A stretch of 64,000 nt of DNA from NCBI GenBank assembly GCA_902762565.1, contig CACWOS010000009.1:1-64000 (forward strand). The letters run 5' to 3'. This stretch comes from an uncultured Prevotellaceae bacterium (GTDB taxonomy: Bacteria > Bacteroidota > Bacteroidia > Bacteroidales > Bacteroidaceae). The notes beneath the pieces are model-generated. The model was not told the DNA's origin and ran no database searches. It was given only the letters and a program-made list of their open reading frames with translations. A program made the position numbers and the translations under genes. Shown here in pieces: positions 920-15,201 of the stretch (position 1 is its first letter; each line of letters begins with the position of its first letter).

Positions 920-1044
920 TATCTTTGCACCCAGTAATGCATCAAGAGTGGCTCATGTAGCCCACCAACCGGCCTAATCGTTGGCAACGGTGGTAAAAAG
1001 ATGCGAGTGAACGAGACAGATCTATTCACTAAACAGTAAACGAT
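920..1044 (+). promoter_or_regulatory. Promoter (TATCTTTG at 920-927) and short structured leader
   Basis: A consensus -7 box at 920-927 predicts transcription from about 934. The leader to 1044 contains CCACC/GGTGG and CAAC/GTTG complementary segments at about 969-1000 and an AGTGAA/TTCACT pair at about 1007-1031, suggesting a folded 5' UTR. It precedes the small frame at 1045. Confidence 0.5.
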
Positions 1045-1299
1045 ATGGAAATCAAGAAGATTGAGAATTGCAATTATGTCATGTTTCCACGCCTCCAGCA
1101 TTGTGGGCTGAAGCCAGAGCATGTAAATCAAGATGCCTTCAAGGCAGAGTTTAGGCACGTAGAGGGTCACGGTGACTACTGGCTCCTGCACTATCTGCCA
1201 AACCATTTCGCAAAAGCCAGGGAATTCCAGGCTTGTTTAACACGGTGCGTCACTCATTCTATTAAAAATACTATCATTCCCATAGTTCATCGTTACTAA
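1045..1299 (+). CDS. Small hypothetical protein, 84 aa, possibly truncated
   Basis: The frame begins MEIKKIENCNYVMF after a good promoter box and a structured leader, which argues that it is translated. The first 65 residues, containing CGLKPEHVNQ and GDYWLLHYLPNHF, look like ordinary protein. The last 20 residues are of different character and overlap the 3' end of the convergent gene at 1274 by 26 bp, so the gene may be a broken remnant whose original C-terminus was lost. I do not recognise the family. A shadow frame exists on the opposite strand, but the promoter favours this one. Confidence 0.4.
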   Translation: MEIKKIENCNYVMFPRLQHCGLKPEHVNQDAFKAEFRHVEGHGDYWLLHYLPNHFAKAREFQACLTRCVTHSIKNTIIPIVHRY

Positions 1300-2015: not shown

Positions 2016-2036
2016 GCAAAGATTTCGTATCTTTGC
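2016..2036. promoter_or_regulatory. Symmetrical divergent promoter/operator
   Basis: GCAAAGAT (2016-2023) and ATCTTTGC (2029-2036) form a perfect 8-bp inverted repeat around TTCGT. The right arm contains the plus-strand -7 box TATCTTTG (2028-2035) for the operon starting at 2329. The left arm gives AATCTTTG on the minus strand, one base off consensus, facing the gene at 1912. A dimeric regulator or two back-to-back polymerases could use this symmetry. Confidence 0.6.
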
Positions 2037-2041
2037 ATCGT

Positions 2042-2328
2042 TCATACCCACGCCTTCGGGCGAATGGGTGGGACGGCGACATATTGGAAAGCGTCATTGA
2101 TGCTTTGTTTTTGGCTATTTGAACGTCGGAAACTCAAATCCTGTACAAAGACAAAAGCGGAACTTACCGGCGTGGGTATTCAGACTCTGTCCGTTCTTTC
2201 AGGAAGGCTTCCGACGGCCGAAATAGCAGAATGGGCAGGTGAGGATACCCCGCTTTTTGTATGCCGTCATTAGTAGCTAAGAACCCTCTGGCCCACGGGT
2301 ATCAGTCAGAACAACACGTTGCTGACAG
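2042..2328 (+). ncRNA. Long structured 5' leader or small RNA ahead of the defence-like operon
   Basis: Transcription from the 2028-2035 box should begin near 2042, leaving about 287 nt before the methylase start. Features suggesting folding are: ATACCCACGCC (2045-2055) is fully complementary to GGCGTGGGTAT (2173-2183); inside the first arm is a CGCC-TTCG-GGCG tetraloop hairpin; AAAGC pairs with GCTTT at about 2088-2107; ATTTGA pairs with TCAAAT at about 2119-2141; CGTCGGA near 2126 is complementary to TCCGACG near 2206. The AAAGC/GCTTT hairpin and the long-range pairs could nest, while the last two compete and may be alternatives. A 69-codon frame at 2064-2273 crosses the structure and is probably incidental. 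Possible roles are a regulatory leader, or an RNA component of the system. No known RNA family was recognised. Confidence 0.55.
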
Positions 2329-3261
2329 ATGCCAGATCATAAGTCAGTTGATTTATTTGGAGGAAGACCTGCAAGAAGGATTCTCGCCAAACCATTCGTG
2401 AAATGGGTTGGCGGAAAGACTAATTTGCTTAAAATATTAGAATCACAGTTACCTGCTGACTTTGATTCCCAAACGGATGTCACTTATATCGAGCCTTTTG
2501 TTGGTGGTGGTGCTATGCTGTTCCACATGCTGACACGACATCAGAATATCCGTCGTGTCGTCATTAATGACATTAATAAGGGACTTATCAGATGCTATCA
2601 ACTCATTAAAGAAGAACCTCAGACGTTGATTGAACTATTACGCCCCTTTGAACAGAGGTATTATGAGTTAAATGATGAAGAGCGAGAGCAGTATTATTAC
2701 GAGATTCGGAAAAAGTATAACGAAGACAATCTTTCAGCGAACGAAAGAGCAGCCTATATGATATTCCTAAACATCACTTGCTTTAGAGGTATGTACAGAG
2801 AGAATGCATCGGGAGGCTATAACGTACCCTTTGGTCACTATTCGAAACCTAAGATCTGTAATGTCGATGTTATCATGGCTGACCATGAAGCGCTTAAAAA
2901 GGTGGACATTTATTGTGGCGATTATAAAAAAGTTATTTCACATTTAGGCAAAGGATACAACTTTGTGTATTTGGATCCCCCCTACAGGGCTTTAGAAGGC
3001 TCTTGCAACTTCAACCAGTATTTCAAAAATGGTTTTAGCGACAAAGAGCAAGTGGAGCTAAAGGTATTCTGTGACCGCCTGACAGCCAAGGGATGCAAAG
3101 TGATGCAGAGCAACTCTGATAGTACCAATAAAGACGGAACGTCTTACTTCGAGACGCTTTACGAAGGATATACTTTCGGCAAGGTACTTGCCTCACGATA
3201 CATCAATGCTTATGCTGAAAAACGTGAGAAACAGTCTGAGGTGCTGATTACGAACTATTAA
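2329..3261 (+). CDS. Dam-type (D12 class) adenine-N6 DNA methyltransferase
   Basis: The 310-residue protein has the class-alpha Dam order: FVKWVGGKTNLL (about 23-34, SAM-binding start), YIEPFVGGGAMLFH (53-66, motif I), NDINKGLI (80-87), NITCFRGMYREN and catalytic DPPY at 216-219, with target-recognition residues between. Its length is normal. It transfers a methyl group from SAM to adenine in a short site; GATC is common in the family, but specificity cannot be read here. It is first in an operon with a helicase, an SMC-like ATPase and a second methylase, so it likely marks self DNA. The start follows the structured leader; a five-base gap separates it from the next gene. Confidence 0.93.
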   Translation: MPDHKSVDLFGGRPARRILAKPFVKWVGGKTNLLKILESQLPADFDSQTDVTYIEPFVGGGAMLFHMLTRHQNIRRVVINDINKGLIRCYQLIKEEPQTLIELLRPFEQRYYELNDEEREQYYYEIRKKYNEDNLSANERAAYMIFLNITCFRGMYRENASGGYNVPFGHYSKPKICNVDVIMADHEALKKVDIYCGDYKKVISHLGKGYNFVYLDPPYRALEGSCNFNQYFKNGFSDKEQVELKVFCDRLTAKGCKVMQSNSDSTNKDGTSYFETLYEGYTFGKVLASRYINAYAEKREKQSEVLITNY

Positions 3262-3266
3262 TTGGG

Positions 3267-5324
3267 ATGCCTATGTTGAATAAGAGAAAATACAAGCCCA
3301 TATACAGGACTCATAAGGATTCCATTGATCAGGATTTTTATGTCCCCTGCTTTTCTGAGAGTATCAGGCTAGATAGAGCAGCCGGATATTTCTCCCTCCA
3401 CTCATTGACATTGTCTATTGATGGCCTTATTCGTTTTATACGCAAAGGTGGACAAATCAATCTAATATGTAGCCCAGACCTATCCCAAGCTGATGCTGAA
3501 CTTATAGATGCATGTGTGAGCCTTGATAAAGAGCATGTTACGAAGTCGCTAATAGAGTCAATAACTGGAGCCCAACTTTCTGATGAGGAACTTGCCCTAC
3601 TTGATGTTGTTTGCAATATGTTGACGGAAGGGGAATTAACTATAAAGATTGCTTATCAACCACTTGGAATCTTCCACGAGAAATTTGGTATATTTGTTGA
3701 TGAGGAAGATAATAAAGTCTACTTTAATGGCTCATTAAACGAGACAAAAAGAGCCTTTAAGTTTAATCAAGAGAGTATTCAGGTCAACTATTCCTGGTTA
3801 AATGAATATACAGCAACATTCATTGAGGGGGAAGAACGTTATTTTAATCAGTTATGGAACAACCAAGATGAATCGGTTGTGGTGATAGACTTCCCCACAG
3901 CTGTTGAAAAGGAGTTGTTAAACTGCTACAAAAGAAGCGACACCCTCGAAACGGCAATTGATAACTACATTTCCAGCCACATAACGAAAGGGAAGAAGAC
4001 ACTTTATTCTTATCAAGAAGATGCAATCAAACAGTTTTGTGAAAACGGCTACCAGCATTTCTATGAGATGGCAACAGGTACCGGAAAAACCTTCACTTCC
4101 GTCAAGACAATTCAGACTTTAGAAAAGAAGTGCGAAGAGAATTTGTTTGTTGTTGTCTGCGTTCCCCAAGTAGATCTACAGACACAATGGGCTAGTGCAT
4201 TACAGGAGGAAGGATATGACAAAGTCTATCTATTTGGTGGAAATGGGAAATCGTTTGACCTGACGATAGGAGAAGCTACTATAGACTATTACTCAGATGA
4301 CAGAAACGTTATCTGTGTCGCAGTTTATGACACGTTCTTTTCAAAGGTATATCCCAAGATTCAACGCATCCCATCATTGTTCTTGATAGTTGATGAGGCT
4401 CATAACTTGACAAAGGGTAACCTATCGGCATTAGTTAAACTTAATCCAAAATACAAGTTAGGACTCAGTGCAACCATTCAGCGCTTCAGCGAAAGCGAAT
4501 CTGAAGCTATTGCCAGGTTCTTTACCCCTGGTGATACTTTTTATTATGGTATTGAAGACGCCATCGACAACGACTTCCTGTCGAAATATGAATACCATCC
4601 CATTTTTGTTCGTTTGAATGAAGATGAGAATGAGAAGTTCCTGTTTAAGAGCAAACTCCTAGCCCAAGAGATGAACAAAAAAGAACCTGATCAAGAGGTA
4701 ATAGACAAATTGCGTCGAGAGAGGAGCTTAATCTTAAAACAAGCCTCAAACAAAATGGTGAAGCTGAGAGAACTAACTGATAGTGGATACAATTTCGTCA
4801 ACTCTGTAGTATATTGTGGTCAGGGTAAAGATGGTGAAGGAGAGTCTATCATCGACTCTGTAACCAGAGTGCTATATGACAAAGGGTTGGTTGTATCCCA
4901 GTTTACCAGTCATACACTCGACAGAAAAAGAGTACTGTATGAATTTGAACATGGATTCTTTGATACACTTGCGGCAATAAAGTGCTTCGACGAAGGTGTA
5001 GATGTGCCAAAACTGGATAAGATATATATCATGGCTAGCGATAGTGCACTCAGGCAAACCGTTCAGCGACGAGGACGTGTTCTTCGAAAATGTAAGGAGA
5101 GTGGAAAGACCATCGCATACATCTACGACATGGTGGTACTTCCTGCAGTGGAAGCAGGAACCTATGGTTGCGAGGGATTGCTTAAGATTGAACTGTCGAG
5201 AGCAAGAGAATATAACAGGCTCGCCTTGAACAAAGACGAAAATGAAGCCAGATTTTGTGAGATAGAAAACGATTACCACATAACAATTGAAAACGTAACA
5301 GATTATGAATCAGAACCCGATTGA
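3267..5324 (+). CDS. PLD-like nuclease domain fused to DEAD/DEAH helicase
   Basis: Residues 1-200 resemble a phospholipase-D-type nuclease domain: RAAGYFSLHSL (37-47), LICSPDLS, and the HxK motif FHEKFGIFVD (H137, K139) with FNGSLNE (N154) completing the active site. Residues 245-625 are a superfamily 2 helicase: SYQEDAI, Walker A ATGTGKT (269-275), VDEAHN (DEAH 376-379), LGLSAT (398-403), a short insertion, FDEGVDVP and motif VI QRRGRVLR. At 685 residues it resembles restriction-type helicases that travel with methylases. One HxK is visible, so an active nuclease might need dimerisation. It probably translocates on and cuts unmodified DNA; this is inferred. The alternative start at 3273 (MLNKRK) is equally possible. 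Confidence 0.88.
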   Translation: MPMLNKRKYKPIYRTHKDSIDQDFYVPCFSESIRLDRAAGYFSLHSLTLSIDGLIRFIRKGGQINLICSPDLSQADAELIDACVSLDKEHVTKSLIESITGAQLSDEELALLDVVCNMLTEGELTIKIAYQPLGIFHEKFGIFVDEEDNKVYFNGSLNETKRAFKFNQESIQVNYSWLNEYTATFIEGEERYFNQLWNNQDESVVVIDFPTAVEKELLNCYKRSDTLETAIDNYISSHITKGKKTLYSYQEDAIKQFCENGYQHFYEMATGTGKTFTSVKTIQTLEKKCEENLFVVVCVPQVDLQTQWASALQEEGYDKVYLFGGNGKSFDLTIGEATIDYYSDDRNVICVAVYDTFFSKVYPKIQRIPSLFLIVDEAHNLTKGNLSALVKLNPKYKLGLSATIQRFSESESEAIARFFTPGDTFYYGIEDAIDNDFLSKYEYHPIFVRLNEDENEKFLFKSKLLAQEMNKKEPDQEVIDKLRRERSLILKQASNKMVKLRELTDSGYNFVNSVVYCGQGKDGEGESIIDSVTRVLYDKGLVVSQFTSHTLDRKRVLYEFEHGFFDTLAAIKCFDEGVDVPKLDKIYIMASDSALRQTVQRRGRVLRKCKESGKTIAYIYDMVVLPAVEAGTYGCEGLLKIELSRAREYNRLALNKDENEARFCEIENDYHITIENVTDYESEPD

Positions 5325-5478
5325 AGATGTCTTAGACGAACTTCTGTTTACTGAGGTTCAGAAAGAAGGATTTTGGAAGTTCCTGAACTATGCAAAGACT
5401 TGTCAGGAAACCGGTAATAATAAGCAGTTGAAATCACAACTCGAAGAAGTCGTGAGAGAGATTGTGTCTAAATCATAG
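5305..5478 (+). CDS. 57-aa small operon protein
   Basis: An ATG at 5305 opens 57 codons ending at 5478, overlapping the helicase end by 20 bp and stopping four bases before the ATPase start. The product, beginning MNQNPIEDVLDELLF, is predicted helical and charged, with an amphipathic second half (QLKSQLEEVVREIVSKS). Its tight spacing between two operon genes argues for translation. I do not recognise the family. Its position suggests an adaptor or subunit joining the helicase and the ATPase, as small proteins do in other multi-gene defence systems; that is inference. Confidence 0.7.
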   Translation: MNQNPIEDVLDELLFTEVQKEGFWKFLNYAKTCQETGNNKQLKSQLEEVVREIVSKS

Positions 5479-5482
5479 CGTC

Positions 5483-7567
5483 ATGAAGATCAATTACATC
5501 AAATATCACAATTATCGTTGCTTCAAAGACGTAACCATACGTTTTGACACAACAGAGCAGAAGAATATTTCGCTAGTATTAGGAGTCAATGGCTCTGGTA
5601 AAACGGAAATGCTGTTTTCTTTCCAGTGGGTACTTTATGGTTTCGATTTTAGCAGTATGCGCGAGAAGGAAGAAACTCCTTACTCACTTAATTCCACCCT
5701 CCATCATCGGCTCGAAGTAAATCGTCATGCCAACTCCGAAGAATGCTGGGTGGAACTATGCTTCACCAACAAATCTATAGAGTATTTTGTGAAGCGTACT
5801 GAAACCTTCATGCGGATCAATGACAAGATAAATTCGAATACCAAAGTGGAATTGAGCTATAACAAGCCCAATGGTGAACGCACTGCTCCAGAGACAAACA
5901 AAGAGCTAATAGAAGAACTCCTGTCAAGGATTATTCCCAAATCAATTTTGGAAGGAATAACATTTGACGGCGAACGCATGAAAAAACTCAATATTGTTGG
6001 AGACCAATCGAAAGAGACCATCAAAAATGTCATATCTCTTGTTACAAACGAGAAACTCTTTGAATTGTGCAGCGAGGAGATAAAGGATATCAAAGGAGAC
6101 ATCCGTAAAGAGAGGATGCGAATAAACAAGAGCTCTGGAAATGTTACGGCGGAGGAACTTGAACAGGAAATTGAGGACCTCGAAGAAACCCTTGAAGATA
6201 AAGATATCGAATTGAACGGCATATTAAAGAATCAAGAGAATGTTGAAGCGAAGCTCGAAGAAATCTCTTTACAACTATCCCAACTTGAAGATGCAGCAAA
6301 ACTGGAACAGAAACGCAAGGGTTTAGAAAGGGATTTGGCAACGGCAAAGAAACACTTCGAGCAAAACACCGATCAGTTTTTTAAGCGACTACTTGATGGA
6401 TATGCATTGGTAACAGATAAACTGGTGGACGATGTAAAATCCTCAATAGAGAATGTAGATGTTCCTGCAGGTCTTACAGTTGAGGCTGTTAAAAGCATCT
6501 TAAAGCGCCCCAAGTGCATCTGTGGCTGCGATATGAATGATGACATCGTGAAGCATTTAACAGAAATGATTGCTGCACTACCTCCAGATAATATTAGCAG
6601 CACGCTACTTTATATGGCCAACCAGTTTGATGGAGAGAAGAAAAGGGCAAAGAAGTTGCTTAAAGAAAGCTATAAGGCCATGAAAGATAGCGAAGATGAG
6701 GTTGCAAACATAAAAATCGAATTGTCAGAAATCTCATCATCGTTAGTTTCAAACGTATCAGACACAATTAAACAGCTTGAAACAGAAAGAAGGGAACAAG
6801 ACGAGTTGATGGGACGTTTGAAAGGTAATGAAGACCGATGTCGTGGAATGATTGACAAATCGAGCAAGAGACTGAAGGAAGCCCAAAAAGAGCTAGAAGA
6901 AGCATCAGGAAGTCAAGAGCAAATAAAGGCTTTGGACGCAGAACAGAATGTTTTGGAACTCTTTATGAATGCCATCATAAAAATTGGTGAGCGGAATAGC
7001 GAACTGTCACTTGAGAGCATCAATAGTTATCTTACTAATGCTTATACCTTGCTTAGTGAGGATACTGGTAGACGTATCTACTTATGTCAGCACGGAAGAA
7101 GAGAAAAGTACAGGCTTGTTACCTACGTAAAAAGCAAGTACGATGAACTACGATCTTCATGGGTCAATAGCGGACATATCAAAACTTTGGAAGATGATGG
7201 GCTTAGCGAAAGTGAGATACACGAAAGAATTGTTCTTGAGGTCGTAGAAGGAAAGTCTACTGGACAGAGCAAGGTGAATTCATTAGCTTTTGCTAAGGCT
7301 GTTTTGGATTATTCGAATGAAGACCGGACAGCCGACAAATTAAAAGTCTCGCATGACTACCCGTTTTTGATAGATTCTCCATTCACCGAACTGAGCGGAA
7401 AGAATCTGGATAACGTGGCTCAATATATTCACACATTTGCCAACCAGATTATTTTAATGGCAGATGACAAGAGCTATGGTGGTGTTCAGCAACTTGTAGC
7501 GCCTTCAGTAAAATCAACTGCAAGACTACTAAAAGATTCAACAGAAGGTTTCACTTATACAAAATAA
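5483..7567 (+). CDS. DndD-like SMC/RecN-family AAA ATPase
   Basis: The start at 5483 (MKINYIKYHNYRCF) is chosen because it follows the 57-aa gene and begins exactly with the conserved SMC N-terminal strand; the upstream ATG at 5462 would overlap that gene. The 694-residue protein has Walker A GVNGSGKT (34-41), FDGERM near 161-166, coiled coils at about 215-295 and 385-485, a cysteine cluster CICGC (345-349) with PKC at 343-345 at the hook, and a C-terminal Walker B-like YPFLIDSPFTELSG (from 626). This order matches DndD of the DNA phosphorothioation system and related repair-like ATPases. No DndA, B, C or E gene is nearby, so it probably serves in DNA sensing or degradation rather than sulfur modification. 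Confidence 0.88.
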   Translation: MKINYIKYHNYRCFKDVTIRFDTTEQKNISLVLGVNGSGKTEMLFSFQWVLYGFDFSSMREKEETPYSLNSTLHHRLEVNRHANSEECWVELCFTNKSIEYFVKRTETFMRINDKINSNTKVELSYNKPNGERTAPETNKELIEELLSRIIPKSILEGITFDGERMKKLNIVGDQSKETIKNVISLVTNEKLFELCSEEIKDIKGDIRKERMRINKSSGNVTAEELEQEIEDLEETLEDKDIELNGILKNQENVEAKLEEISLQLSQLEDAAKLEQKRKGLERDLATAKKHFEQNTDQFFKRLLDGYALVTDKLVDDVKSSIENVDVPAGLTVEAVKSILKRPKCICGCDMNDDIVKHLTEMIAALPPDNISSTLLYMANQFDGEKKRAKKLLKESYKAMKDSEDEVANIKIELSEISSSLVSNVSDTIKQLETERREQDELMGRLKGNEDRCRGMIDKSSKRLKEAQKELEEASGSQEQIKALDAEQNVLELFMNAIIKIGERNSELSLESINSYLTNAYTLLSEDTGRRIYLCQHGRREKYRLVTYVKSKYDELRSSWVNSGHIKTLEDDGLSESEIHERIVLEVVEGKSTGQSKVNSLAFAKAVLDYSNEDRTADKLKVSHDYPFLIDSPFTELSGKNLDNVAQYIHTFANQIILMADDKSYGGVQQLVAPSVKSTARLLKDSTEGFTYTK

Positions 7568-7572
7568 CTACT

Positions 7573-8028
7573 ATGCCAATCAATATAGACAATACATATC
7601 GTATAAATCGTAATCTCGATCAAGATGAGCAGATGCGATATTTGGTGAGAGACCTCAAAGTATTTAATGGCTACCCACAGATCCTTACAATCTCTGCACT
7701 TATTGGCTATGTAAATCAGGCGTATGTTCCTTTTCAGAATAGGGCAGAGCCTGTACAAACAACATTCTTTGAAGATAGAGAAAAGGAGATAATGAACTTC
7801 CTGGCTTATCTGAAAGAAGGCAATCAGTCCATTCTACAGGAAAGGCCCAAAGAAGATCCAGATAGAAATAAGATGTACCAAGCATTCGAGTTTTATGCTA
7901 ATGGTGGATTTCCTATTTTGTGTAAGAAATTAGGGGTAGACTTTGCTGACAAGAGCAAAAATGACAGATATACAATACTGCATAATTACTACAATATGTT
8001 GGTTTCAAACGATTTAATGGACGTGTAA
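7573..8028 (+). CDS. Dnd-system-associated-protein-4-like protein
   Basis: A 151-residue protein, five bases after the ATPase. It matches the remembered pattern of proteins annotated as dnd system-associated protein 4: a helical N-terminus, ILTISALIGYVNQAYVPF (about 37-54), a FFEDREKEIMNFLAYL region and EFYANGGFPILCKKL near 107-121 (the ANGG motif). The function of that family is not known to me; members occur with phosphorothioation and restriction genes. Together with the DndD-like ATPase it points to borrowing of Dnd-linked parts into a methylation-based operon. Assignment rests on motif memory, so it is moderate. Confidence 0.6.
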   Translation: MPINIDNTYRINRNLDQDEQMRYLVRDLKVFNGYPQILTISALIGYVNQAYVPFQNRAEPVQTTFFEDREKEIMNFLAYLKEGNQSILQERPKEDPDRNKMYQAFEFYANGGFPILCKKLGVDFADKSKNDRYTILHNYYNMLVSNDLMDV

Positions 8029-8033
8029 CTGTT

Positions 8034-8483
8034 ATGAAGAAATTACTCCCCCAGGCAAATACGCTTGCTACAGTCATCAGGACATTCAAGTTCATTGCTA
8101 ATACAATGAATTGTTCCTTGAATGACATTGCCGACTTTAACAAATTCGAGGTTCGGCAGGCAGCCTACTATTCTAATGCATGTTATTTTCTTGAACTCAT
8201 AGACGAAAATCTTAAATTGACATCTTTAGGTGAGGATATTATGCAGGATCCTAAGCGAGCCAAAGTCAGGATATATGAGCAAATTATAAAGAATGAACTG
8301 ATTGGGCAGCTTTTCGCTAAGACGGCACTATACCCAAGGAGGACTGCTATAAAAGAAGGAAAGGAACTTGTACGAGGACTCTATCCTGAATATGGAGAGG
8401 CTGTTATAGACCGACGTACCAAATGTTTGATTGGATGGTGTGAGGAGATTATTGACTACATGAAGACTCAGAAGAACAGTTAA
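8034..8483 (+). CDS. Winged-helix protein of restriction-associated type
   Basis: A 149-residue protein starting MKKLLPQANTLATV. It has a winged-helix pattern: NCSLNDIADFNKFEVRQAAYYSNACYFLELI followed by LKLTSLGEDIM, which matches the RQAxYYxxAxxLGL...LTxxG signature found in accessory domains of restriction enzymes and regulators (DUF7226-like). The C-terminal half ends RRTKCLIGWCEEIIDYM, resembling the RRxxTVxxWxxW tail that follows that domain. It is likely a DNA-binding or subunit-binding module of the system. Its stop overlaps the start of the sigma-like gene by one base (TAATG), implying translational coupling. Confidence 0.6.
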   Translation: MKKLLPQANTLATVIRTFKFIANTMNCSLNDIADFNKFEVRQAAYYSNACYFLELIDENLKLTSLGEDIMQDPKRAKVRIYEQIIKNELIGQLFAKTALYPRRTAIKEGKELVRGLYPEYGEAVIDRRTKCLIGWCEEIIDYMKTQKNS

Positions 8484-10216
8484 TGAACGATATTGAGGGA
8501 ATATATTCACTATTGTTGCATAGTAATGGTCTTAAGATACGAGCAATCTCACAAGAACTCGAATTAGACAAATATTATGTGGCAGAGATTATGTTCTCTT
8601 CACAGAATATCCCGTATTGGTATCAGGATGATGATTCTTTGTGGTATGCAAAGGAAGGTGCTCTTCAGATTGAAGAGCCGGAAAAAAAGGATGAACTGGT
8701 AGAAACATCCATTGTTATTCCCAAATACAATCTCAATAGGTTCCAACAGGAGGATATAAGTGAGTCCTTGAGAGCCTATCTTAACAAGATATCAAAATTC
8801 AGAATCTATACTAATGATGAGACATTAGAACTGTTCAAACGATACAGGAAAGGCGATAATAAGGCTTTTGGGCTCATTGTAAAGAGCCAGCAAAGACTCG
8901 TGGCAAACATTGCCCTTCTATATTGTAGAAAAGGAGTTCCTCTTGAAGATATCATACAAGAAGGGAATATAGGACTGATAAAAGCTGTAGAGCGTTTTGA
9001 TGATACCCAATATCGTAGTTTCTCTAATTTTGCTAAGACATGGATTTTACAAGCAATCTCATATTCAATGACAACAATGCCTTTTCTGATAAGACTCCCT
9101 CTGAACCAATTGACGCAGTACCGAAAAGTTCGTAAATTTAAAGATAAATTTGAACAGGAGAATGAATATCCCCCATCTGTTTGTGAAATAGAGATAGGCG
9201 AAGATGTTGAATTAGAAAAATTGGAACTATTAGACTTGCTTCCTAATGATTTAAGGCAACTCGTCGAGATAAATAATAACCTCGATCTCATAGAAAGCAA
9301 AGAAAACCTAATTACCTTCTTTGAAGACAAAGAATACAAACGCCTCCTTATTCGTAAATTTATGAAACGATTAAATGATAGAGAGACACGCATCTTAAGA
9401 CTATATTATGGAATAGATGCTACTGAAGAAACCTTATCTTCGATTGGAGATAAATTGTTCTTAACACGTGAAAGAGTAAGGCAGATTTTGTGGTCTACCA
9501 TTCGTAAACTACAAGATGAGTCGAATGTTAAACGAGAAGAGGCAAAGATCGGAGAAATGATTTGTTTTGATTCGTCAAACAAAGTGGGACGTGTTATAAG
9601 TACGAAGCAAGATAAAAATGGGGCGACTATTCTTGTTGTGAAGATGGGGGCAGGGTTTACGACAGAAATATCTGTATATGACAATCCATATCATATTATT
9701 AAAAAAGAATATAAGAAGTTACCTCAGACAAACCTAAAGAAAACTCAAAACGAAACGATTAAGAATAATACTTCAAGACGGAAAGAAAGCAAGGGTTTGA
9801 GCAAGGAATTACACCGTGAAGTAACTATAATTGATGATTTAAAGTTGGGCGACAAGATATACTATGACAGATCGTATTGTACTATAAAAAAAATAATTAA
9901 AAATGGCAAGTTCTCGAAACTTATAATAGAGTATGCTAATGGTGTTAGAGATGTCGTGCCTTATAACAAATCACGATATGTTAAAATACAACACACTCGT
10001 AAAGAAACTCACAATAAGCCTCTGACTAAAACAAGACATTTTGCAAGCCAAATCAAAAGGGAAGCGATGGTTGGTGACAGAATTATGTATGGTTCAAAAC
10101 CTTGCTTGGTACTTGAGAAAAAGACGATGAGAAATTCGCTCCGTTTAATAGTCAAATACGATGATGGGAGTTTAGACAATGTTCAGAATGATTGGGACAA
10201 ATACCGAGTTTTATAA
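8483..10216 (+). CDS. Sigma-70-family protein with N-terminal winged helix and three C-terminal beta-barrel-like repeats
   Basis: The 577-residue protein is unlike a housekeeping sigma. Residues 1-65 form a winged helix (LKIRAISQELELDKYYVAEI, then WYQDDDSLWYAKEG). Residues 93-206 carry sigma regions 1.2 to 3.0: LRAYLNKIS, region 2.2 PLEDIIQEGNIGLIKAVERF, regions 2.3-2.4 FSNFAKTWILQAI, and FLIRLP. Region 4 is at 297-344 with LNDRETRILRLYYG and the helix-turn-helix TLSSIGDKLFLTRERVRQIL. After it come three related short units at about 355-410, 450-502 and 527-577, each beginning GxxI or GDxI and rich in beta strands with basic linkers, resembling SH3/KOW-like barrels. It could direct RNA polymerase to system or phage promoters, or use sigma folds to sense polymerase. 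It is cotranscribed with nuclease and methylase genes. Confidence 0.85.
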   Translation: MNDIEGIYSLLLHSNGLKIRAISQELELDKYYVAEIMFSSQNIPYWYQDDDSLWYAKEGALQIEEPEKKDELVETSIVIPKYNLNRFQQEDISESLRAYLNKISKFRIYTNDETLELFKRYRKGDNKAFGLIVKSQQRLVANIALLYCRKGVPLEDIIQEGNIGLIKAVERFDDTQYRSFSNFAKTWILQAISYSMTTMPFLIRLPLNQLTQYRKVRKFKDKFEQENEYPPSVCEIEIGEDVELEKLELLDLLPNDLRQLVEINNNLDLIESKENLITFFEDKEYKRLLIRKFMKRLNDRETRILRLYYGIDATEETLSSIGDKLFLTRERVRQILWSTIRKLQDESNVKREEAKIGEMICFDSSNKVGRVISTKQDKNGATILVVKMGAGFTTEISVYDNPYHIIKKEYKKLPQTNLKKTQNETIKNNTSRRKESKGLSKELHREVTIIDDLKLGDKIYYDRSYCTIKKIIKNGKFSKLIIEYANGVRDVVPYNKSRYVKIQHTRKETHNKPLTKTRHFASQIKREAMVGDRIMYGSKPCLVLEKKTMRNSLRLIVKYDDGSLDNVQNDWDKYRVL

Positions 10217-10233
10217 AGAAGTAGAGGTGAAAG

Positions 10234-11478
10234 ATGTCAGAAATTACACCATTCTATAAATCTCCCAACAAAGACTTCACCCTCGTAGAAGGTGATTGTG
10301 TGTCGGTGCTTGAGGCGTTTGATTTCAAGTTCGATATGATTTTTGCTGACCCTCCGTACTTTCTGAGTAATGGCGGCATCAGTGTAAGTAGTGGCAAGGT
10401 GGTTTGCGTGGATAAAGGAGAATGGGACAAGGCGCCTTCAGCTGAATACATTGATGAGTTTAATCGCCGGTGGCTTTCGGCTTGCAAGGATAAGCTGAAA
10501 GATAATGGTACCATTTGGATAAGTGGTACCCATCACAATATATTCTCTGTGGCGGACCAGCTGTCGGAATTAGGATTTAAGATTCTGAATGTTGTTACCT
10601 GGAATAAGACAGACCCGCCGGATAACGTTTCTCATCGGGTATTTAAACACTCGGCTGAGTACATCATCTGGGCCAAGAAATCTAAGCGGGCTCAGCATCG
10701 CTATAATTATGAGTTGATGCGTCAATTGAATGATGGCAAGCAAATGACGGATGTGTGGCGTATGCCGGCAGTGGCGAAGTGGGAGAAATCATGTGGCAAG
10801 CATCCTACGCAGAAGCCATTGAGTCTGTTGTCGCGCATCATCATTGCATCAACACAGGAAGGCGACTGGGTGCTCGACCCATTTAACGGTAGTGGTACTA
10901 CAGGTGTTGCTGCTTCTCTGCTTGGGAGGAAGTATCTGGGTATAGATATGGATTTGGGGTATCTCGAACTTGCCTCTAAACGTCGAGAAGAATTGAAAAA
11001 CGAGGAGATTCGACAGGCATACAAAGAGATGGTTCTGGTGGACTTCAACGGTGCCATTCAAGCCGAAAAGCCCCATCTTGTGCTTGTTGGCAGAATAGGT
11101 TCTGAAGAACAATGGGAATGGTTCGAGAAATCGCATACCTACATACTGCCTATCAGCAAGATTCTATCTATGCCGAAGCTTTTGGGTGCTGAGTATGTGC
11201 TGGCTTTTCTTGGCAAAGACTCGAAAAGGGCACAACTATGCAGAATATCGTCAGTAAAACCACAAGTGAAGACCCGTGAGCAAGTAACGGAGATGGCATC
11301 GCATACGTCTGACTACAAGCCATCACGCGACAAAACCTACTGGCTTATCCATCTGGAAAAGCCTTTGGATGAATTGAAAGGGAAGGTGTTCAATAAGTCG
11401 TTGTTGCTCAATACGCAGGAGCAACGCGGAGCCTATTGGATTAAGAAATACGAAGAGGCTATCAAGGCGTTTGAGTAG
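10234..11478 (+). CDS. DpnA/HinfI-type (class beta) DNA methyltransferase
   Basis: The 414-residue protein has motif IV before motif I, the class-beta order: FADPPYFLSNGG (DPPY 39-42), WISGTHHNIF, KHPTQKPLSLL (189-199) and DPFNGSGTTGVAA (215-227). These are the marks of DpnA/HinfI-like adenine methylases; DpnA pairs with a Dam-type DpnM in the DpnII system, which mirrors the two methylases here. Residues after about 275 form an unrecognised C-terminal domain (HLVLVGRIGSEEQWEW...YWLIHLEKP). An SD-like AGAGGTGA at 10223-10230 precedes the start, unusual for this phylum and suggesting strong translation. It is the last gene in the operon. Confidence 0.92.
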   Translation: MSEITPFYKSPNKDFTLVEGDCVSVLEAFDFKFDMIFADPPYFLSNGGISVSSGKVVCVDKGEWDKAPSAEYIDEFNRRWLSACKDKLKDNGTIWISGTHHNIFSVADQLSELGFKILNVVTWNKTDPPDNVSHRVFKHSAEYIIWAKKSKRAQHRYNYELMRQLNDGKQMTDVWRMPAVAKWEKSCGKHPTQKPLSLLSRIIIASTQEGDWVLDPFNGSGTTGVAASLLGRKYLGIDMDLGYLELASKRREELKNEEIRQAYKEMVLVDFNGAIQAEKPHLVLVGRIGSEEQWEWFEKSHTYILPISKILSMPKLLGAEYVLAFLGKDSKRAQLCRISSVKPQVKTREQVTEMASHTSDYKPSRDKTYWLIHLEKPLDELKGKVFNKSLLLNTQEQRGAYWIKKYEEAIKAFE

Positions 11479-11574: not shown

Positions 11575-11733
11575 ATGTCACACGAAGAAAGAAAGTCAGA
11601 GATGGCAAACAATAGAGCCATTAACTCGAAAAAGACGGCTAGAAGTCGGTTTATGAGATGGGCAAGGGCGCATAAAGGAGCTTTTGTTATAAATGATCCT
11701 GAACTGAAAGCGCAATTGGTTAGCTTCGATTAA
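11575..11733 (+). CDS. Putative antitoxin, 52 aa
   Basis: A 52-codon frame from 11575, starting MSHEERKSEMANNR, 28 bases after a consensus promoter box and ending five bases before the PIN-domain gene. The product is basic in the first two thirds (KKTARSRFMRWARAHKG) and ends with an acidic tail, fitting a small DNA-binding antitoxin. I do not recognise the family. The role is inferred from its position directly upstream of a VapC-like toxin and from the promoter palindrome. Confidence 0.65.
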   Translation: MSHEERKSEMANNRAINSKKTARSRFMRWARAHKGAFVINDPELKAQLVSFD

Positions 11734-11738
11734 AGAGC

Positions 11739-12155
11739 ATGCGATTACTGCTTGACACTTGCGTTATCATTGACTGGCTTACGGATTCTGACCCGTTTGA
11801 CCGAAATGTTTGGGATATCTTGAATGACCCAGACAATCGTCTTTATATCAGTGCAGAAACACAACGAGAATTAATAGTTTCTTTTAATAACAAGAAATTT
11901 CTGACTAAATTTTGGAGAACAGCAGAAGAAATGCTGCTAAGTATTAAGCAAGAAGCAAACATTGACACGCTTCCTATCACTGAGCGAACAATGTTTACGT
12001 ATTCTCGCCTTATTCTTAACGAGGCTCAGGAGCACAATGACCCTAGTGACCATGTAATTATTGCACATGCAATAACCGAGCAACTTACGTTGTTATCCAG
12101 TGATCAGAAATTTCCATTCTATCGTAATCAAGGATTGGATCTTCTTGAATATTAA
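11739..12155 (+). CDS. PIN-domain toxin (VapC-like)
   Basis: The 138-residue protein shows the PIN-domain acidic residues: D6 in LLLDTCVIIDWL, E40/E44 in SAETQRELI, D101/D104 in NDPSDHVIIAHAI and D122 in LLSSDQKF. The motif order and length match VapC-type endoribonucleases that cleave tRNA or rRNA and are neutralised by a partner encoded upstream. The 52-aa gene upstream with a five-base gap is the likely antitoxin. A terminator-like hairpin follows at 12223-12249. Location beside the defence-like operon may mean a stabilising or abortive-infection role. Confidence 0.82.
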   Translation: MRLLLDTCVIIDWLTDSDPFDRNVWDILNDPDNRLYISAETQRELIVSFNNKKFLTKFWRTAEEMLLSIKQEANIDTLPITERTMFTYSRLILNEAQEHNDPSDHVIIAHAITEQLTLLSSDQKFPFYRNQGLDLLEY

Positions 12156-12251: not shown

Positions 12252-12259
12252 TACCTTTG
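12252..12259 (+). promoter_or_regulatory. -7 box TACCTTTG
   Basis: The box ends ten bases before the ATG at 12269, so the transcript is nearly leaderless. It overlaps a possible TTG start at 12257, which argues against that longer frame. Confidence 0.6.
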
Positions 12260-12268
12260 CAAACAAGT

Positions 12269-12793
12269 ATGAAGAAACAAGGTGAACTAACGCATAAGGA
12301 GGCTGTTAAGAAGGCACTGGAGGAACTTGGTGGCAGAGCCAGGTTAAAAGATATTTATCCTCGTGTAATTCCGCTTGTAAAGTATAAACCTGGGAGTGAC
12401 ATTAAAGCCACACTCAGGCGGTTACTACAAACAACTCCTGAATTATTCCGTCCGGTAGAGGGAATGAAAGGTTGGTGGGAACTTGTTTCTTATCGGAAAG
12501 AATTAGCCGATAAAGACAAGAAGATAGCGGAATTGACAAACTCAAATATAACCAAAGACGGAATTATAAATGCCTTTAATGGTTTCGATTCTTTGACGGA
12601 GAGAATATATGCCAAACAGATGATGCAGTTGATGTTTCATGGAAATACAGCTTGGGAAAATGCATATAAAGACATGAAAAGTGCAGGCTATTTCAAAGAC
12701 ATACAACCGCAGATTATTTTAAATCATCCCCAGTTTGGTTCGCTTTATGAGGTTAAAGGAAATAAAGAAGTAAAAATAGGAAAGGATATCTAA
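12269..12793 (+). CDS. HARE-HTH-like domain protein
   Basis: The 174-residue protein starts MKKQGELTHKEAVKKAL. Residues 9-75 resemble the HARE-HTH (restriction endonuclease/HB1-ASXL) fold: ALEELGGRARLKDIYPRV, KPGSDIKATLRRLLQ, and MKGWWELV. A coil (KELADKDKKIAELT) follows and then a helical C-terminus ending with a NHPQFGSLYEV strand. The HARE-HTH fold is known in restriction and chromatin proteins as a nucleic-acid-binding module. It overlaps the next gene by one base (TAATG), so the two are probably translated together. Domain assignment is moderate; function is unknown. Confidence 0.6.
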   Translation: MKKQGELTHKEAVKKALEELGGRARLKDIYPRVIPLVKYKPGSDIKATLRRLLQTTPELFRPVEGMKGWWELVSYRKELADKDKKIAELTNSNITKDGIINAFNGFDSLTERIYAKQMMQLMFHGNTAWENAYKDMKSAGYFKDIQPQIILNHPQFGSLYEVKGNKEVKIGKDI

Positions 12794-13233
12794 TGGCAAA
12801 AGACAATGGTAATACTCCAGACATTACCTTTTCCGGTGACATCACCGTAAATGGTCCGATGTTCGATATACACGACAATGAGCATGTACATATCGGGAGG
12901 TCTGTAGAGGAGGCTGTCAACAAAGAAGGTGACGAAAAAAAGGTAGTTGCAGAGGAAAGGGACGAAGAACAGTTCCATTTCATTCACCCGGAGATTGAGG
13001 ATAAAGAGGCTTGGCGTATTCACAAAGCTATAAAACGATTAGTGGCCTATCAAAAAGTGCCGGAGATTTGTGCCTATCTGAAAGAGAAGAAACAGGAAGG
13101 TAAATTGTATCTGCCACCGAATCCGAGTTTTGTTTATGAAGAGTTAAAGCGTTTGGGTATGCCTACAGGTGACGGATACAGCGATAAGTATTTTGCAGGT
13201 TGCTACAAAAACATAACGATATCGAAAGATTGA
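12793..13233 (+). CDS. Hypothetical protein, partner of the HARE-HTH-like gene
   Basis: A 146-residue protein. Residues 8-36 read DITFSGDITVNGPMFDIHDN and on to EHVHI, a repeated beta-strand pattern. An acidic-basic linker follows, then a helical domain with KAIKRLVAYQKVPEICAYLK and ends GYSDKYFAGCYKNI. I know similar N-termini in Bacteroidota accessory regions but cannot name a family. Coupling to the previous gene (TAATG) and the shared terminator at 13240 show a two-gene operon. Confidence 0.65.
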   Translation: MAKDNGNTPDITFSGDITVNGPMFDIHDNEHVHIGRSVEEAVNKEGDEKKVVAEERDEEQFHFIHPEIEDKEAWRIHKAIKRLVAYQKVPEICAYLKEKKQEGKLYLPPNPSFVYEELKRLGMPTGDGYSDKYFAGCYKNITISKD

Positions 13234-13239
13234 TAGTTA

Positions 13240-13269
13240 AGCATCAGATTTTATTCTGGTGCTTTTTTT
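13240..13269 (+). terminator. Intrinsic terminator
   Basis: AGCATCAGA and TCTGGTGCT form a stem with one G-T pair around a TTTTAT loop, followed by seven T. It begins seven bases after the stop codon of the 12793 gene. Confidence 0.75.
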
Positions 13270-13650
13270 ATGTCTTGTGGTGTGGATATTAGTTGATATT
13301 TCAAGAAATTCCAAGATATCACAAGATATTCCAAGACAGCCACTTTTAAAGCCATTTCCCTTTGAAAAAATATATCGAATTTTGTGCTTGCAAAGCCGAG
13401 GACGCTTGGATTCACTTTGCAAGTGCTCTTTGAAAATTTGACACAAAAAATAATCAAAAGATTGATTCTTCATATACTCATTTGTGCCATTTGGAATGGC
13501 ACAAATGATCATACTAAAGTTGGTCTTTCTCTCTTCGGGAGCTGCTGAGGTAAGTGCCTCGGTAGCTCTCTCACGTACACACGTACATTTATTTTAAGTA
13601 TCACTATAAAGGTCGCCTTAAAGGGGGCGACGTAAAATAAACTGTTATAT
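13270..13650 (+). other. Non-coding stretch with short repeats and hairpins
   Basis: No convincing gene. Near 13285-13337 short words such as CAAGATAT and GATATTCCAAG recur. At 13478-13508 a perfect 14-bp stem (TCATTTGTGCCATT and its complement) closes on TGG. At about 13540-13570 GAGCTGCTGAGGT pairs with GCCTCGGTAGCTC through several G-T pairs, and GTCGCC pairs with GGCGAC at about 13611-13630. The G-T pairs favour an RNA structure, perhaps the leader of the gene at 13651. No promoter box was found. Confidence 0.5.
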
Positions 13651-14310
13651 ATGAACAGAACAGATATTCAGGAATTTAAGAGATTCCTTCACGTTAGAGA
13701 ACTTTTTGGTATGTTCTCACAGTACTACCGTACTAACCACCTGTCATCGAATCCGCCCACTCTGGAGGCTTATCTGGAGAAGGCCAAGGCTGAGAGTGTC
13801 ATTCCACTGGCTTTCGTCTATCCGAAGACGATATATGGCAAAGATTTCTGGCTGGCTATCCACGAGGAATGGAACCAGCACCTGCAGGAAGAGCGGGCTG
13901 AACGTAGCGAGGCTGACCAGCTGAGCAGCTTGGGTTTGGAGGTTATCGACATCCAGACGAGGACTACCTGCACGGGGCTGCCTAAGAACACTTGTTCGCT
14001 GAGTCTGCGAGGGGGTAAGCGTTTCTCGCTGAACCTGGAACACTCGAAGATGGTGGCTAAGAAGCTTTCGACTCACATGTTGCTGACCCGTAGCCGACAG
14101 ACTACCGATGTGGTCCTGATGTTCAACAGACAGAGGGGCATTGAGGTGAAGTTCAAGCCAGGCTCGAGCAGTCTTCAGTTCAACAATGCCGAGTTGGCTA
14201 ATCAGCTGATAAAGCTGTTGGAACTCGACCCCGAAAAGGAGTACTTCCAGATTGGCATCGAGGTGCTGACGGAGTCGAAGGACTATTTATTGTTTATGTT
14301 GAAAAAATAA
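13651..14310 (+). CDS. Hypothetical protein, primase-module gene 1
   Basis: A 219-residue basic-to-neutral protein starting MNRTDIQEFKRFLHVREL, with no signal peptide or membrane segment. The middle holds CTGLPKNTCSLSLRGGKRFSL, and the C-terminal half KMVAKKLSTHML...GIEVKFKPGSSSLQFNN suggests mixed alpha/beta folds. I do not recognise it. It leads a run of genes ending in a primase/ATPase and is likely expressed with them, after a structured leader. Confidence 0.65.
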   Translation: MNRTDIQEFKRFLHVRELFGMFSQYYRTNHLSSNPPTLEAYLEKAKAESVIPLAFVYPKTIYGKDFWLAIHEEWNQHLQEERAERSEADQLSSLGLEVIDIQTRTTCTGLPKNTCSLSLRGGKRFSLNLEHSKMVAKKLSTHMLLTRSRQTTDVVLMFNRQRGIEVKFKPGSSSLQFNNAELANQLIKLLELDPEKEYFQIGIEVLTESKDYLLFMLKK

Positions 14311-14359
14311 GGAAGAAGATTAAGGATAAGGTAAGGAATTCTATTAACTGTTTAAAAGA

Positions 14360-14653
14360 ATGGAAGCAACAGTAAGAATTTTGAATCAGTCGGGTCTGAT
14401 TACACGTCAGTACACCGACAAGAAAACGGGCGAGCAGAAGGTTATCAACTCTGTGATGCTCAAGTTGACGGACGGTACGGATTCTTTCCTCGGAGAAATC
14501 ACGGGCGAGAGAGCTGTGAATTGTCCTAAGTTCGACCCTCAGCACCAGTACAAGGTGCAGTGCTCTATGGTGGTTCGTGAGTGGAACTCGCAGCAGACCG
14601 GCGAGGCTATGCAGGCTACTACGATTTACGTGGATAAGATCGGGATGGTATGA
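14360..14653 (+). CDS. Small hypothetical protein, possibly OB-fold
   Basis: A 97-residue protein beginning MEATVRILNQSGLITRQY. The pattern is nearly all beta strand with charged turns (TDKKTGEQKVINSVMLKL, YKVQCSMVVREWN, TTIYVDKIGMV), which would fit a small OB-fold such as a single-stranded DNA binder. That is inference from strand pattern; no family is recognised. The stop overlaps the next start by four bases. Confidence 0.6.
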   Translation: MEATVRILNQSGLITRQYTDKKTGEQKVINSVMLKLTDGTDSFLGEITGERAVNCPKFDPQHQYKVQCSMVVREWNSQQTGEAMQATTIYVDKIGMV

Positions 14654-15201
14654 CTTTAGAGTATCTTGAGATTATGGAAGAGATTGTAAAGGTTAAGGGT
14701 GAAGGGTTAAAGGTTAATGATGACCCTACGCAGAAGGCTTCTTCAAGAAGGAAGCTACAGAGATCGTTCAAGTCGAACACCCGTATCTATGATGACGGTT
14801 CGATTGAGGTTGACCCACAGGCTCAGGGAGAGCCGTCACAAAAAGACGTGAAGAAGGTGGGTAAGTCGAAGCGGTATATTACATCGGGTAAGAATCCGCT
14901 GACTTGCATTGAGTTGAAGTGTCCCGACAACGTGCCTGACAAGGCGGCCTTCTTCCACAAGGAGTTGGCTAAGTTGACGAAGGACATGGAGATTGAGGAG
15001 CCGCAGATGCCAGAGGGTGAGTTCCTGCTGGATGAACCCTGCGTGAAGGTACGCTTTGCGGCAAAGGAGCACAAGGTGGTAGCCTGGCTCACATTTGAGG
15101 CTAAAGGATTGATAGACGTAAGGAGAGAGCTGTACAATCTAACAAGCAAGATTGACAAATGTTTTGTTATCAACGAAGCTTCAGTTTGCCAACTGAAGTA
15201 G
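14650..15201 (+). CDS. Hypothetical protein, 183 aa
   Basis: The protein starts MTLEYLEIMEEIVKVKGEG, then has a disordered basic stretch (KASSRRKLQRSFKSNTR and GEPSQKDVKKVGKSKRY) and a C-terminal region around KAAFFHKELAKLTKDMEIE. It overlaps the primase/ATPase gene by 43 bp, so it likely belongs to the same transcript. I do not recognise the family. Confidence 0.6.
   Translation: MTLEYLEIMEEIVKVKGEGLKVNDDPTQKASSRRKLQRSFKSNTRIYDDGSIEVDPQAQGEPSQKDVKKVGKSKRYITSGKNPLTCIELKCPDNVPDKAAFFHKELAKLTKDMEIEEPQMPEGEFLLDEPCVKVRFAAKEHKVVAWLTFEAKGLIDVRRELYNLTSKIDKCFVINEASVCQLK

What the first reader, a model, noticed from the sequence alone, without database searches (positions are those of the whole stretch)
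2329..11478. Candidate undescribed anti-phage operon: two methylases, PLD-helicase, DndD-like ATPase and a sigma factor
Eight genes sit with overlaps or gaps of 0-17 bases behind one promoter: Dam-type methylase, PLD-DEAD/DEAH helicase, 57-aa protein, DndD-like ATPase, Dnd-associated-4-like protein, winged-helix protein, sigma-70-family protein, DpnA-type methylase. The methylases suggest self marking and the helicase, ATPase and PLD domain suggest DNA recognition and cutting. The DpnM/DpnA-like methylase pair recalls DpnII, but no DpnII-type endonuclease is present. Dnd-like parts occur without DndA, B, C or E. A sigma factor inside such an operon is, to my knowledge, not part of any named system (restriction types I-III, BREX, DISARM, Dnd, Ssp). 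The defence role is inferred.
Basis: partly seen in the sequence, partly recalled or inferred. Interest (0 to 1): 0.93.

Follow-up and report, generated by a model that had tools for sequence, protein, structure and literature searches.

The report
Restriction system with a sigma factor
In Prevotella-type gut and rumen bacteria a conserved operon joins DNA-methylase genes, a PbeABCD-type gene set predicted to attack unmarked invading DNA, and a fast-changing sigma factor that likely serves as the sensor or targeting part of the defence.

Summary
The eight genes are real and tightly packed. New is the sigma-70 gene. The order dam-pbeA-B-C-D-DUF7226-sigma recurs in 6 of 6 relatives with readable upstream DNA, and a pattern scan of 84,980 species genomes met the sigma's N-terminal domain in six loci, all of this kind (one cut by its contig end). 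The protein keeps the sequence features of a working sigma factor, yet is the fastest-changing gene: against one relative the PbeA-D/DUF7226 block is 98-99% identical, sigma 64%. Five sister loci keep the leader, Dam, DUF7226 and CcrM but carry another nuclease-like protein plus a helicase and no sigma; so sigma goes with the Pbe effector, not with methylation. Best reading: a methylation-marked Pbe restriction system whose sigma protein is probably a variable sensor or targeting part (role untested). The operon is headed by a structured leader RNA absent from Rfam, with a covarying loop-loop pairing; it also precedes many other methylase genes in Prevotella.

The parts
2028..2035 (+). TATCTTTG, a TANNTTTG-type -7 element (Bacteroidota primary-sigma promoter; motif recalled, not from a call)
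   Evidence: sequence; TANNTTTG at the head of 24 of 35 leader copies, many in front of other genes (the extract of the window copy began inside the motif, its duplicate L062 counts it)
2037..2328 (+). structured leader RNA (start approximate); this copy lacks an inner hairpin of about 100 nt present in relatives
   Evidence: fold z -3.95 and -5.07 for the L037 copy; RNAalifold 54 pairs, 12 with two-sided change, 30 copies; present in 5 of 6 relatives with upstream DNA, not in L041; no Rfam match
2124..2131 (+). loop 1 of the predicted loop-loop pairing (CGTCGGAA)
   Evidence: complementary to 2209-2216; 30 of 33 extracted leaders keep 7-9 Watson-Crick pairs in seven sequence classes
2209..2216 (+). 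loop 2 of the predicted loop-loop pairing (TTCCGACG), inside a GGC..GCC hairpin
2329..3261 (+). Dam/DpnM-family N6-adenine DNA methylase
   Evidence: MethyltransfD12 1e-55; DpnM 2dpm 164.6 bits, EcoDam 96 bits; DPPY motif in 7 of 7 operon copies
3267..5324 (+). PbeA: PLD (HKD-type) nuclease-like domain + SF2 helicase
   Evidence: PADLOC PbeA 7.7e-172; PLDc_2, ResIII, Helicase_C; HxK..GSxN and DEAH in 7 of 7 copies
5305..5478 (+). PbeB-position small protein, 57 aa
   Evidence: no family match; identified by position and size; 81-98% identical in 6 of 6 relatives
5483..7567 (+). PbeC: CxC-type ABC ATPase (coiled coil with CICGC hook)
   Evidence: PADLOC PbeC 2.5e-58, AAA_23; Walker A in 7 of 7 copies; C-I-C in 7 of 7, L047 reading CICGHD
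7573..8028 (+). PbeD-position protein, Dnd-assoc-4-like / DndE cognate
   Evidence: TIGR04062 1.2e-11, under cut-off; no PADLOC or Pfam match; size and position as PbeD (152 aa in PMC6459918)
8034..8483 (+). DUF7226 protein, HTH-containing by prediction
8483..10216 (+). sigma-70-family protein: N-terminal HTH-like domain (aa 1-62), sigma regions 1.2-4 (aa 91-346), variable tail of small beta modules (aa 347-577)
   Evidence: Sigma70_r2 8.3e-15, r4 6.8e-11; AF2/PDB match to E. coli sigma70 7n4e 1.4 A over 107 residues; tail modules B and C related, hhalign probability 96.5
10234..11478 (+). CcrM/DpnA-type (beta class, DPPY) DNA methylase with 150-aa C-terminal part
   Evidence: N6_N4_Mtase 1.3e-57; CcrM 6pbd 196.7 bits; present in 5 of 8 operon copies

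Best explanation
The operon is a PbeABCD-type (CxC ATPase-DndE) gene set fused in one transcription unit with Dam- and CcrM-family methylases and a sigma-70-family protein, and it is predicted to work as a methylation-marked restriction system in which the sigma protein likely is the variable sensor or targeting subunit. Inferred steps: (1) Dam (probably GATC) and, where present, the CcrM-type enzyme mark host DNA with N6-methyladenine. (2) PbeC with PbeD scans DNA; DUF7226 may help read its methylation state. (3) PbeA (helicase plus PLD nuclease-like domain), licensed by PbeB, attacks unmarked DNA. (4) The sigma protein, which keeps the residues that bind core RNA polymerase and read promoters, ties this attack to RNA polymerase, either by sensing what a phage does to transcription or by bringing the Pbe complex to promoters on incoming DNA. 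Shown: gene content, conserved order, family membership, purifying selection, cassette exchange, effector swap in sister loci. Not shown: any activity, methylation, binding to RNA polymerase, or defence.
For: PADLOC PbeA 7.7e-172 and PbeC 2.5e-58. Order dam-A-B-C-D-DUF7226-sigma in 6 of 6 relatives with upstream DNA. Sigma-anchored scan of 84,980 species: six loci, each with DUF7226 directly upstream. In the genus, PbeC is in 4 of 398 genomes and sigma is in all four operons. Purifying selection: dN/dS 0.02-0.07 where defined for the other genes, 0.15-0.18 for sigma. Window against L037: PbeA-D and DUF7226 98-99% identical with dS 0.11-0.32 (PbeB dS not computed), but sigma 64% with saturated dS, Dam 77% with dS 2.27, CcrM 95% with dS 1.00: these genes are exchanged as cassettes. 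Sister loci, 5 of 5: same leader, Dam, DUF7226 and CcrM, another effector, no sigma, so sigma travels with Pbe. PbeB, called rapidly evolving in PMC10853773, is 81-98% conserved here while sigma is 47-76%. Sigma residues for core binding and promoter reading are 91-100% conserved over 123 sequences (the assignment of roles is recalled from sigma70).
Against: No experiment. Pbe loci elsewhere do without a sigma: none of the eight other Bacteroidales genomes with a PbeA match showed one, so Pbe chemistry does not need it. PbeB has no family match and PbeD only a sub-threshold one. CcrM is missing from 3 of 8 copies. The window's Dam departs from 11 of 11 relatives at target-recognition positions (N153R, L155M, K172S) and in the KWAGGK motif (A27V), so this copy may be altered or impaired. 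The operon was found only in Bacteroidales. PMC6459918 reports no cleavage of viral DNA by PbeABCD, against the nuclease step.
Confidence: 0.58

Rival explanations
1. The sigma protein is a plain transcription regulator: it directs host RNA polymerase to the operon or to a few other genes, as C proteins control R-M genes, and takes no part in recognising phage.
For: All sigma functional regions are kept, and RNA polymerase direction is the default role of a sigma factor. The core aligns over its length with the host's own primary sigma.
Against: The leader with its TANNTTTG element also heads operons that lack this sigma, including the five sister loci, so that promoter does not need it. The leader is 97% identical next to the dam start between window and L037 although sigma is only 64% identical. 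Gaps between genes (at most 17 bases) leave no room for an intergenic promoter. Sigma is tied to the Pbe effector, not to the methylases.
Confidence: 0.35
2. The sigma protein is a decoy: it mimics the host primary sigma so that phage anti-sigma or RNA-polymerase-modifying proteins hit it and thereby trigger the Pbe effector.
For: Fast change, tail exchange and cassette replacement are what an arms race would give; the core is derived from a Bacteroidota-type primary sigma.
Against: Promoter-reading residues are also kept near 100%, which a pure decoy would not need. No phage partner is known.
Confidence: 0.25
3. The sigma protein is the sequence-specificity subunit, swapped together with the Dam methylase like HsdS in type I systems.
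For: Dam and sigma are the two most exchanged genes between window and L037.
Against: The Dam target-recognition segment (FNGLYR..FNVP.GRY.KP in DpnM and EcoDam style) is kept in 11 of the 11 other Dam proteins apart from single substitutions in two (L040, L111), whatever their sigma, so the methylated site probably does not change with sigma.
Confidence: 0.1
4. The sigma gene is an unrelated passenger that happened to insert in one ancestral operon.
For: Found only in Bacteroidales; other Pbe loci lack it.
Against: One-base overlap with DUF7226, retained in 8 of 8 copies whose sigma is down to 47% identical, and under purifying selection.
Confidence: 0.05

Closest known systems
PbeABCD (DndCDEA-PbeABCD), also called the CxC ABC ATPase-DndE system
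   Same: PbeA, PbeC and, by position and size, PbeB and PbeD, in the order A-B-C-D; occurrence with methylases instead of phosphorothioation genes is predicted in print (PMC6459918 section 10; PMC10853773 section 16)
   Different: No Dnd genes among the eight; N6-adenine methylases of Dam and CcrM type (PMC10853773 names cytosine methylases); added DUF7226 and sigma-70 genes; conserved rather than fast-evolving PbeB
DpnII restriction-modification (DpnM, DpnA, DpnB)
   Same: A DpnM-like and a DpnA/CcrM-like methylase flank the operon
   Different: No DpnB-like endonuclease; the effector is Pbe
MZA (MzaABCDE)
   Same: A defence operon containing a sigma-70-family protein (NF041931)
   Different: Only the sigma core is shared (profile positions 475-706 of 726); no other MZA-type gene among the eight
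DndH variant with a sigma-factor-related HTH (PMC10853773, passage)
   Same: Sigma-derived element in a Dnd-related defence setting
   Different: There an inserted HTH in a HerA/FtsK protein, here a full sigma factor
Sister loci L110-L114
   Same: Leader, Dam, DUF7226, CcrM
   Different: Effector is a 764-776-aa protein (DndB domain over cut-off, NERD just under it, in the two tested) plus an SF2 helicase; no sigma

Membership tests
PbeABCD / CxC-DndE system | PbeA: HKD/PLD nuclease-like domain fused to SF2 helicase | tested here: met
   motifs in 7 of 7 copies
PbeABCD / CxC-DndE system | PbeC: ABC ATPase with CxC hook | tested here: met
   C-I-C in 7 of 7 copies
PbeABCD / CxC-DndE system | PbeB small protein between A and C | tested here: inconclusive
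   57-aa protein in that place in 7 of 7 copies, but no family match
PbeABCD / CxC-DndE system | PbeD, the DndE cognate | tested here: inconclusive
   TIGR04062 45.0 bits, under the 74.25 cut-off; no PADLOC match
PbeABCD / CxC-DndE system | Coupled phosphorothioation genes dndCDEA (original description) | tested here: not met
   none among the eight genes; the rest of the genome was not searched for them; the later description does not require them
PbeABCD / CxC-DndE system | Antiviral activity | not testable with these tools
   -
DpnII R-M | DpnM-type methylase | tested here: met
   2dpm 164.6 bits over residues 16-310
DpnII R-M | DpnB endonuclease | tested here: not met
   no such match among the eight proteins
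MZA | MzaA sigma factor, full length | tested here: not met
   130.4 bits against cut-off 800, core region only
MZA | MzaB-E genes | tested here: not met
   no such PADLOC or NCBIfam match among the eight proteins
sigma-70 family | Regions 2 and 4 with core-binding and promoter-reading residues | tested here: met
   Pfam over cut-off; residue conservation; structure match (from a model with mean pLDDT 62.9)
MTaX1 domain of methylase-linked CxC systems (PMC10853773) | DUF7226 being that domain | not tested
   the defining paper (reference 24 of PMC10853773) was not found in the library; DUF7226 does match a C-terminal part of a type II REase profile, as MTaX1 is said to occur in R-M systems

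The most novel reading that the evidence does not exclude
Transcription-coupled restriction: the sigma protein forms a holoenzyme with host RNA polymerase and delivers the Pbe nuclease to promoters of incoming, unmethylated DNA, making a sigma factor the targeting subunit of a restriction system, while a loop-loop leader RNA shared with other R-M systems sets its expression.
Probability: 0.2. Interest if true: 0.92.

Novelty: new variant of a known kind. Interest (0 to 1): 0.72.

Why it matters
Restriction systems are thought to read DNA sequence and methylation. A sigma factor built constantly into a restriction operon, and changing faster than every other gene there, points to RNA polymerase or promoters as what the system watches or uses. 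It makes testable the printed but open proposal (PMC6459918) that PbeABCD works with methylation in place of phosphorothioation. The shared leader RNA would be a regulator common to many R-M genes in a major gut genus.

Tried and rejected
Alpha-CTD-like domain in some sigma tails (module D): suggested by eye, rejected. hhalign against alpha-CTDs of six genomes gave probability 1.3%, and PF03118 did not hit the sigma loci.

Sigma as phage-borne: IMG/VR gave 11 loci matching the sigma core only at 26-29% identity, none with the N-terminal domain. GenBank phages gave 29 records, none covering 80% of the query. PbeC gave no plasmid match at 1e-20 and one 31% match over residues 1-54 in IMG/VR.

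Leader as operon-specific element: rejected. It is in 97 of 299 genomes of the genus at E <= 1e-5, many matches partial, and 45 of 251 of the family at E <= 1e-10.

Leader as coding sequence: rejected by eye because indels break the frame between copies.

Sigma tail presence against CcrM presence: 5 both, 2 neither, 1 tail only among 8 copies. Too few to claim a link.

First extraction of the leader loops missed L040 and L079 through a faulty window; repeated with a better one. Three of 33 leaders (L055, L069, L077) still lack the pairing; L077 runs off its contig and the other two do not align at the 3' end. L065 could not be extracted and L062 is the window itself.

The sigma N-terminal protein search could only return proteins of 0.55-1.75 times the query length, so a free-standing copy of that domain would not show. 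The genome scan used two degenerate patterns, so distant relatives can be missed.
Full report
What is there. Eight co-directional ORFs fill 2329-11478. PADLOC names the second PbeA (7.7e-172) and the fourth PbeC (2.5e-58). The third (57 aa) and fifth (151 aa) sit where PbeB (66 aa) and PbeD (152 aa) sit in the described module (sizes from passages of PMC6459918); only the fifth has a family match, TIGR04062, and that is under its cut-off. PMC10853773 (section 16 read) states that PbeA is an HKD nuclease with an SF2 helicase, PbeB a small fast-evolving protein, PbeC a CxC-type ABC ATPase and PbeD the DndE cognate. The window's PbeC carries CICGC, and C-I-C is kept in 7 of 7 operon copies. The two methylases are nearest to DpnM and CcrM. 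The sixth gene is DUF7226. The seventh has sigma-70 regions 2 and 4 over the Pfam cut-offs.

Is the set conserved? I made an alignment of the sigma N-terminus and scanned one genome for each of 84,980 species. Of 52 stretches that matched a pattern, six encode a relative: L036-L041, named Prevotella or Bacteroidales. In five of these the order is dam, pbeA, pbeB, pbeC, pbeD, DUF7226, sigma; L036 starts at a contig end but has DUF7226, sigma and ccrM. A seventh copy (L047) came from a genome of the same genus. So 6 of 6 relatives with readable upstream DNA have the block. ccrM follows in the window, L036, L037, L038 and L040 and was not found in L039, L041 and L047. In the order, 9 of 393 genomes have a PbeA match at 1e-40. 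The stretches taken around the other eight (6.6-20 kb) show no sigma relative at E 1e-3; five of them show, by eye, a DndC-like GISGGKDSAALA protein nearby. The sigma is therefore constant in this lineage of Pbe operons and absent from the Dnd-linked Pbe loci sampled.

The sigma family. A protein search with its first 130 residues returned 124 clusters, and all 120 listed carry sigma-70 domains. Over 122 of them plus the window, entropy is lowest in the N-terminal domain (0.66 bits) and region 2 (0.80), high in region 3 (1.77), and 1.25-2.80 in the tail modules and their linkers. Q159, E160, N162, W187, Q190, R329, E330, R333 and Q334 are 95-100% conserved. By recalled sigma70 numbering these are positions for binding the beta-prime clamp, melting and reading the -10 element and reading the -35 element. 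The core aligns with the host's own RpoD, and the AF2 model, of modest confidence (mean pLDDT 62.9), matches E. coli sigma70 at 1.4 A over 107 residues. The tail is built of small beta modules; B and C are related (hhalign 96.5%). Tail length after region 4 runs from 19 to 650 residues among the 108 sequences in which the region-4 motif was found.

Cassette exchange. Window and L037 share a nearly identical core: PbeA 99%, PbeB 98%, PbeC 99%, PbeD 99%, DUF7226 99%, with dS 0.11-0.32 for PbeA, PbeC, PbeD and DUF7226. Yet sigma is 64% identical with saturated dS, Dam 77% with dS 2.27, and CcrM 95% with dS 1.00. The DNA profile drops sharply within dam and within sigma and recovers between them. 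dN/dS is 0.02-0.07 where defined for the other genes and 0.15-0.18 for sigma (most distant pairs are saturated and were left undefined). PbeB, which PMC10853773 calls rapidly evolving and a possible viral-trigger interactor, is 81-98% conserved here while sigma is 47-76%. This is the main reason to give sigma the sensing or targeting role. The reason not to make it the methylation-specificity subunit is that the Dam recognition segment is nearly the same in the 11 other Dam proteins compared, whatever their sigma. The window's own Dam is the exception (N153R, L155M, K172S, A27V) and may be altered or impaired.

Effector swap. Searching genomes that have the leader next to a Dam gene led to five sister loci. 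They run leader, Dam, DUF7226 (39-41% identical), a 764-776-aa protein, a helicase and CcrM; in L114 CcrM precedes the helicase. In the two sisters tested, the large protein has a DndB domain over the cut-off and a NERD nuclease domain just under it, and the helicase is ResIII type (PADLOC). No sigma relative was found in the five. Methylases, DUF7226 and leader thus form a chassis on which the Pbe-sigma set and another nuclease-helicase set are alternatives. That supports a restriction role for Pbe-sigma and ties sigma to the effector.

The leader RNA. Between a TATCTTTG element (2028-2035) and dam lies a leader with fold z -3.95; the fuller L037 copy gives -5.07. RNAalifold on 30 copies gives 54 pairs, 12 with two-sided changes. 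Two hairpin loops are complementary: 30 of 33 extracted copies keep 7-9 Watson-Crick pairs in seven different sequence classes. Pairing a loop with the partner of another class gives 7 or more pairs in 2 of 692 combinations; the first version of this control, which counted the three non-pairing copies as classes of their own, gave 27 of 878. Rfam has no match in the window or in eight other copies. The element is in 97 of 299 genus genomes at 1e-5 and 45 of 251 family genomes, 13 of 30 genera, at 1e-10. Among the 30 best-matching loci fetched, the next gene is a DNA methylase or restriction helicase in 18 (7 Dam including the window, 4 N6_N4, 3 Eco57I, 3 C5, 1 ResIII) and something else, unrecognised or unreadable in 12. 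In 20 weaker matches that I picked from the list, 14 had a readable gene; 11 of these were tested, and 4 were restriction-type (3 C5 methylases, 1 PLD-helicase) while 7 were not. So the leader is enriched before R-M genes but not exclusive to them. Two paper searches met one paper each, on an unrelated system (listings only).

What is known. PbeABCD is antiviral with DndCDEA in an archaeon, and all four genes are needed, pbeA partly (PMC6459918, passages and section 10). The same paper counts 155 of 320 solitary PbeAC with base-modifying genes within 10 kb and proposes methylation-based Pbe modules. PMC10853773 (abstract, section 16, passages) describes CxC-DndE systems with cytosine methylases and proposes cleavage, which PMC6459918 did not see. 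Its only mention of sigma is a sigma-related HTH inside some DndH proteins. Ten papers in the library hold 'PbeABCD'; I opened three of them. One paper holds antiphage, sigma factor, DndD and methyltransferase together, and its sigma passage is about RpoE and EcoKI. MzaA shows that a sigma factor in a defence operon is not unheard of. I therefore file this as a new variant: a Pbe restriction module with N6-adenine methylases and an integral sigma factor.

Limits. No activity was shown. PbeB and PbeD rest on position. The sigma's role is inferred from conservation, exchange and the effector swap.

Noticed in passing
window 2037-2328; relatives in L037-L040, L047, L051-L080: Dispersed structured leader RNA with a covarying loop-loop pairing, absent from Rfam, heading DNA methylase and R-M genes (18 of the 30 best loci) and also other genes in Prevotella-type genomes.
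   Followed up: yes
L110-L114: Sister systems: leader, Dam, DUF7226, DndB-domain protein with a sub-threshold NERD nuclease match, SF2 helicase, CcrM. They look like another restriction system on the same chassis.
   Followed up: partly
window 934-1046 +: SAM-I/IV riboswitch (RF01725, 56.3 bits, gathering score 41.1) without an obvious + strand gene behind it; the next sizeable ORF, 1274-1912, is on the - strand.
   Followed up: no
window 2329-3261: Dam of this copy departs from 11 of 11 relatives at recognition-segment positions and in the KWAGGK motif; it may be altered or impaired.
   Followed up: partly
window 12257-17774: Genes behind the operon (12257, 12793, 14650, and the large ORF 15159-17774) recur behind some Pbe-sigma loci (12257-type in L036, L037, L038: 3 of 7) and behind all five sister loci (12257-type, 5 of 5), suggesting a shared element with exchangeable cargo. 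The large ORF was not run through a family search.
   Followed up: partly
window 11575-12155: A 52-aa ORF followed by a 138-aa PIN-like ORF (by eye), preceded by its own TATCTTTG element at about 11540; looks like a toxin-antitoxin pair.
   Followed up: no
P0013: A sigma-tail sequence joined to a secreted cadherin-like protein; probably an assembly chimera. It was dropped from the sigma alignments.
   Followed up: no
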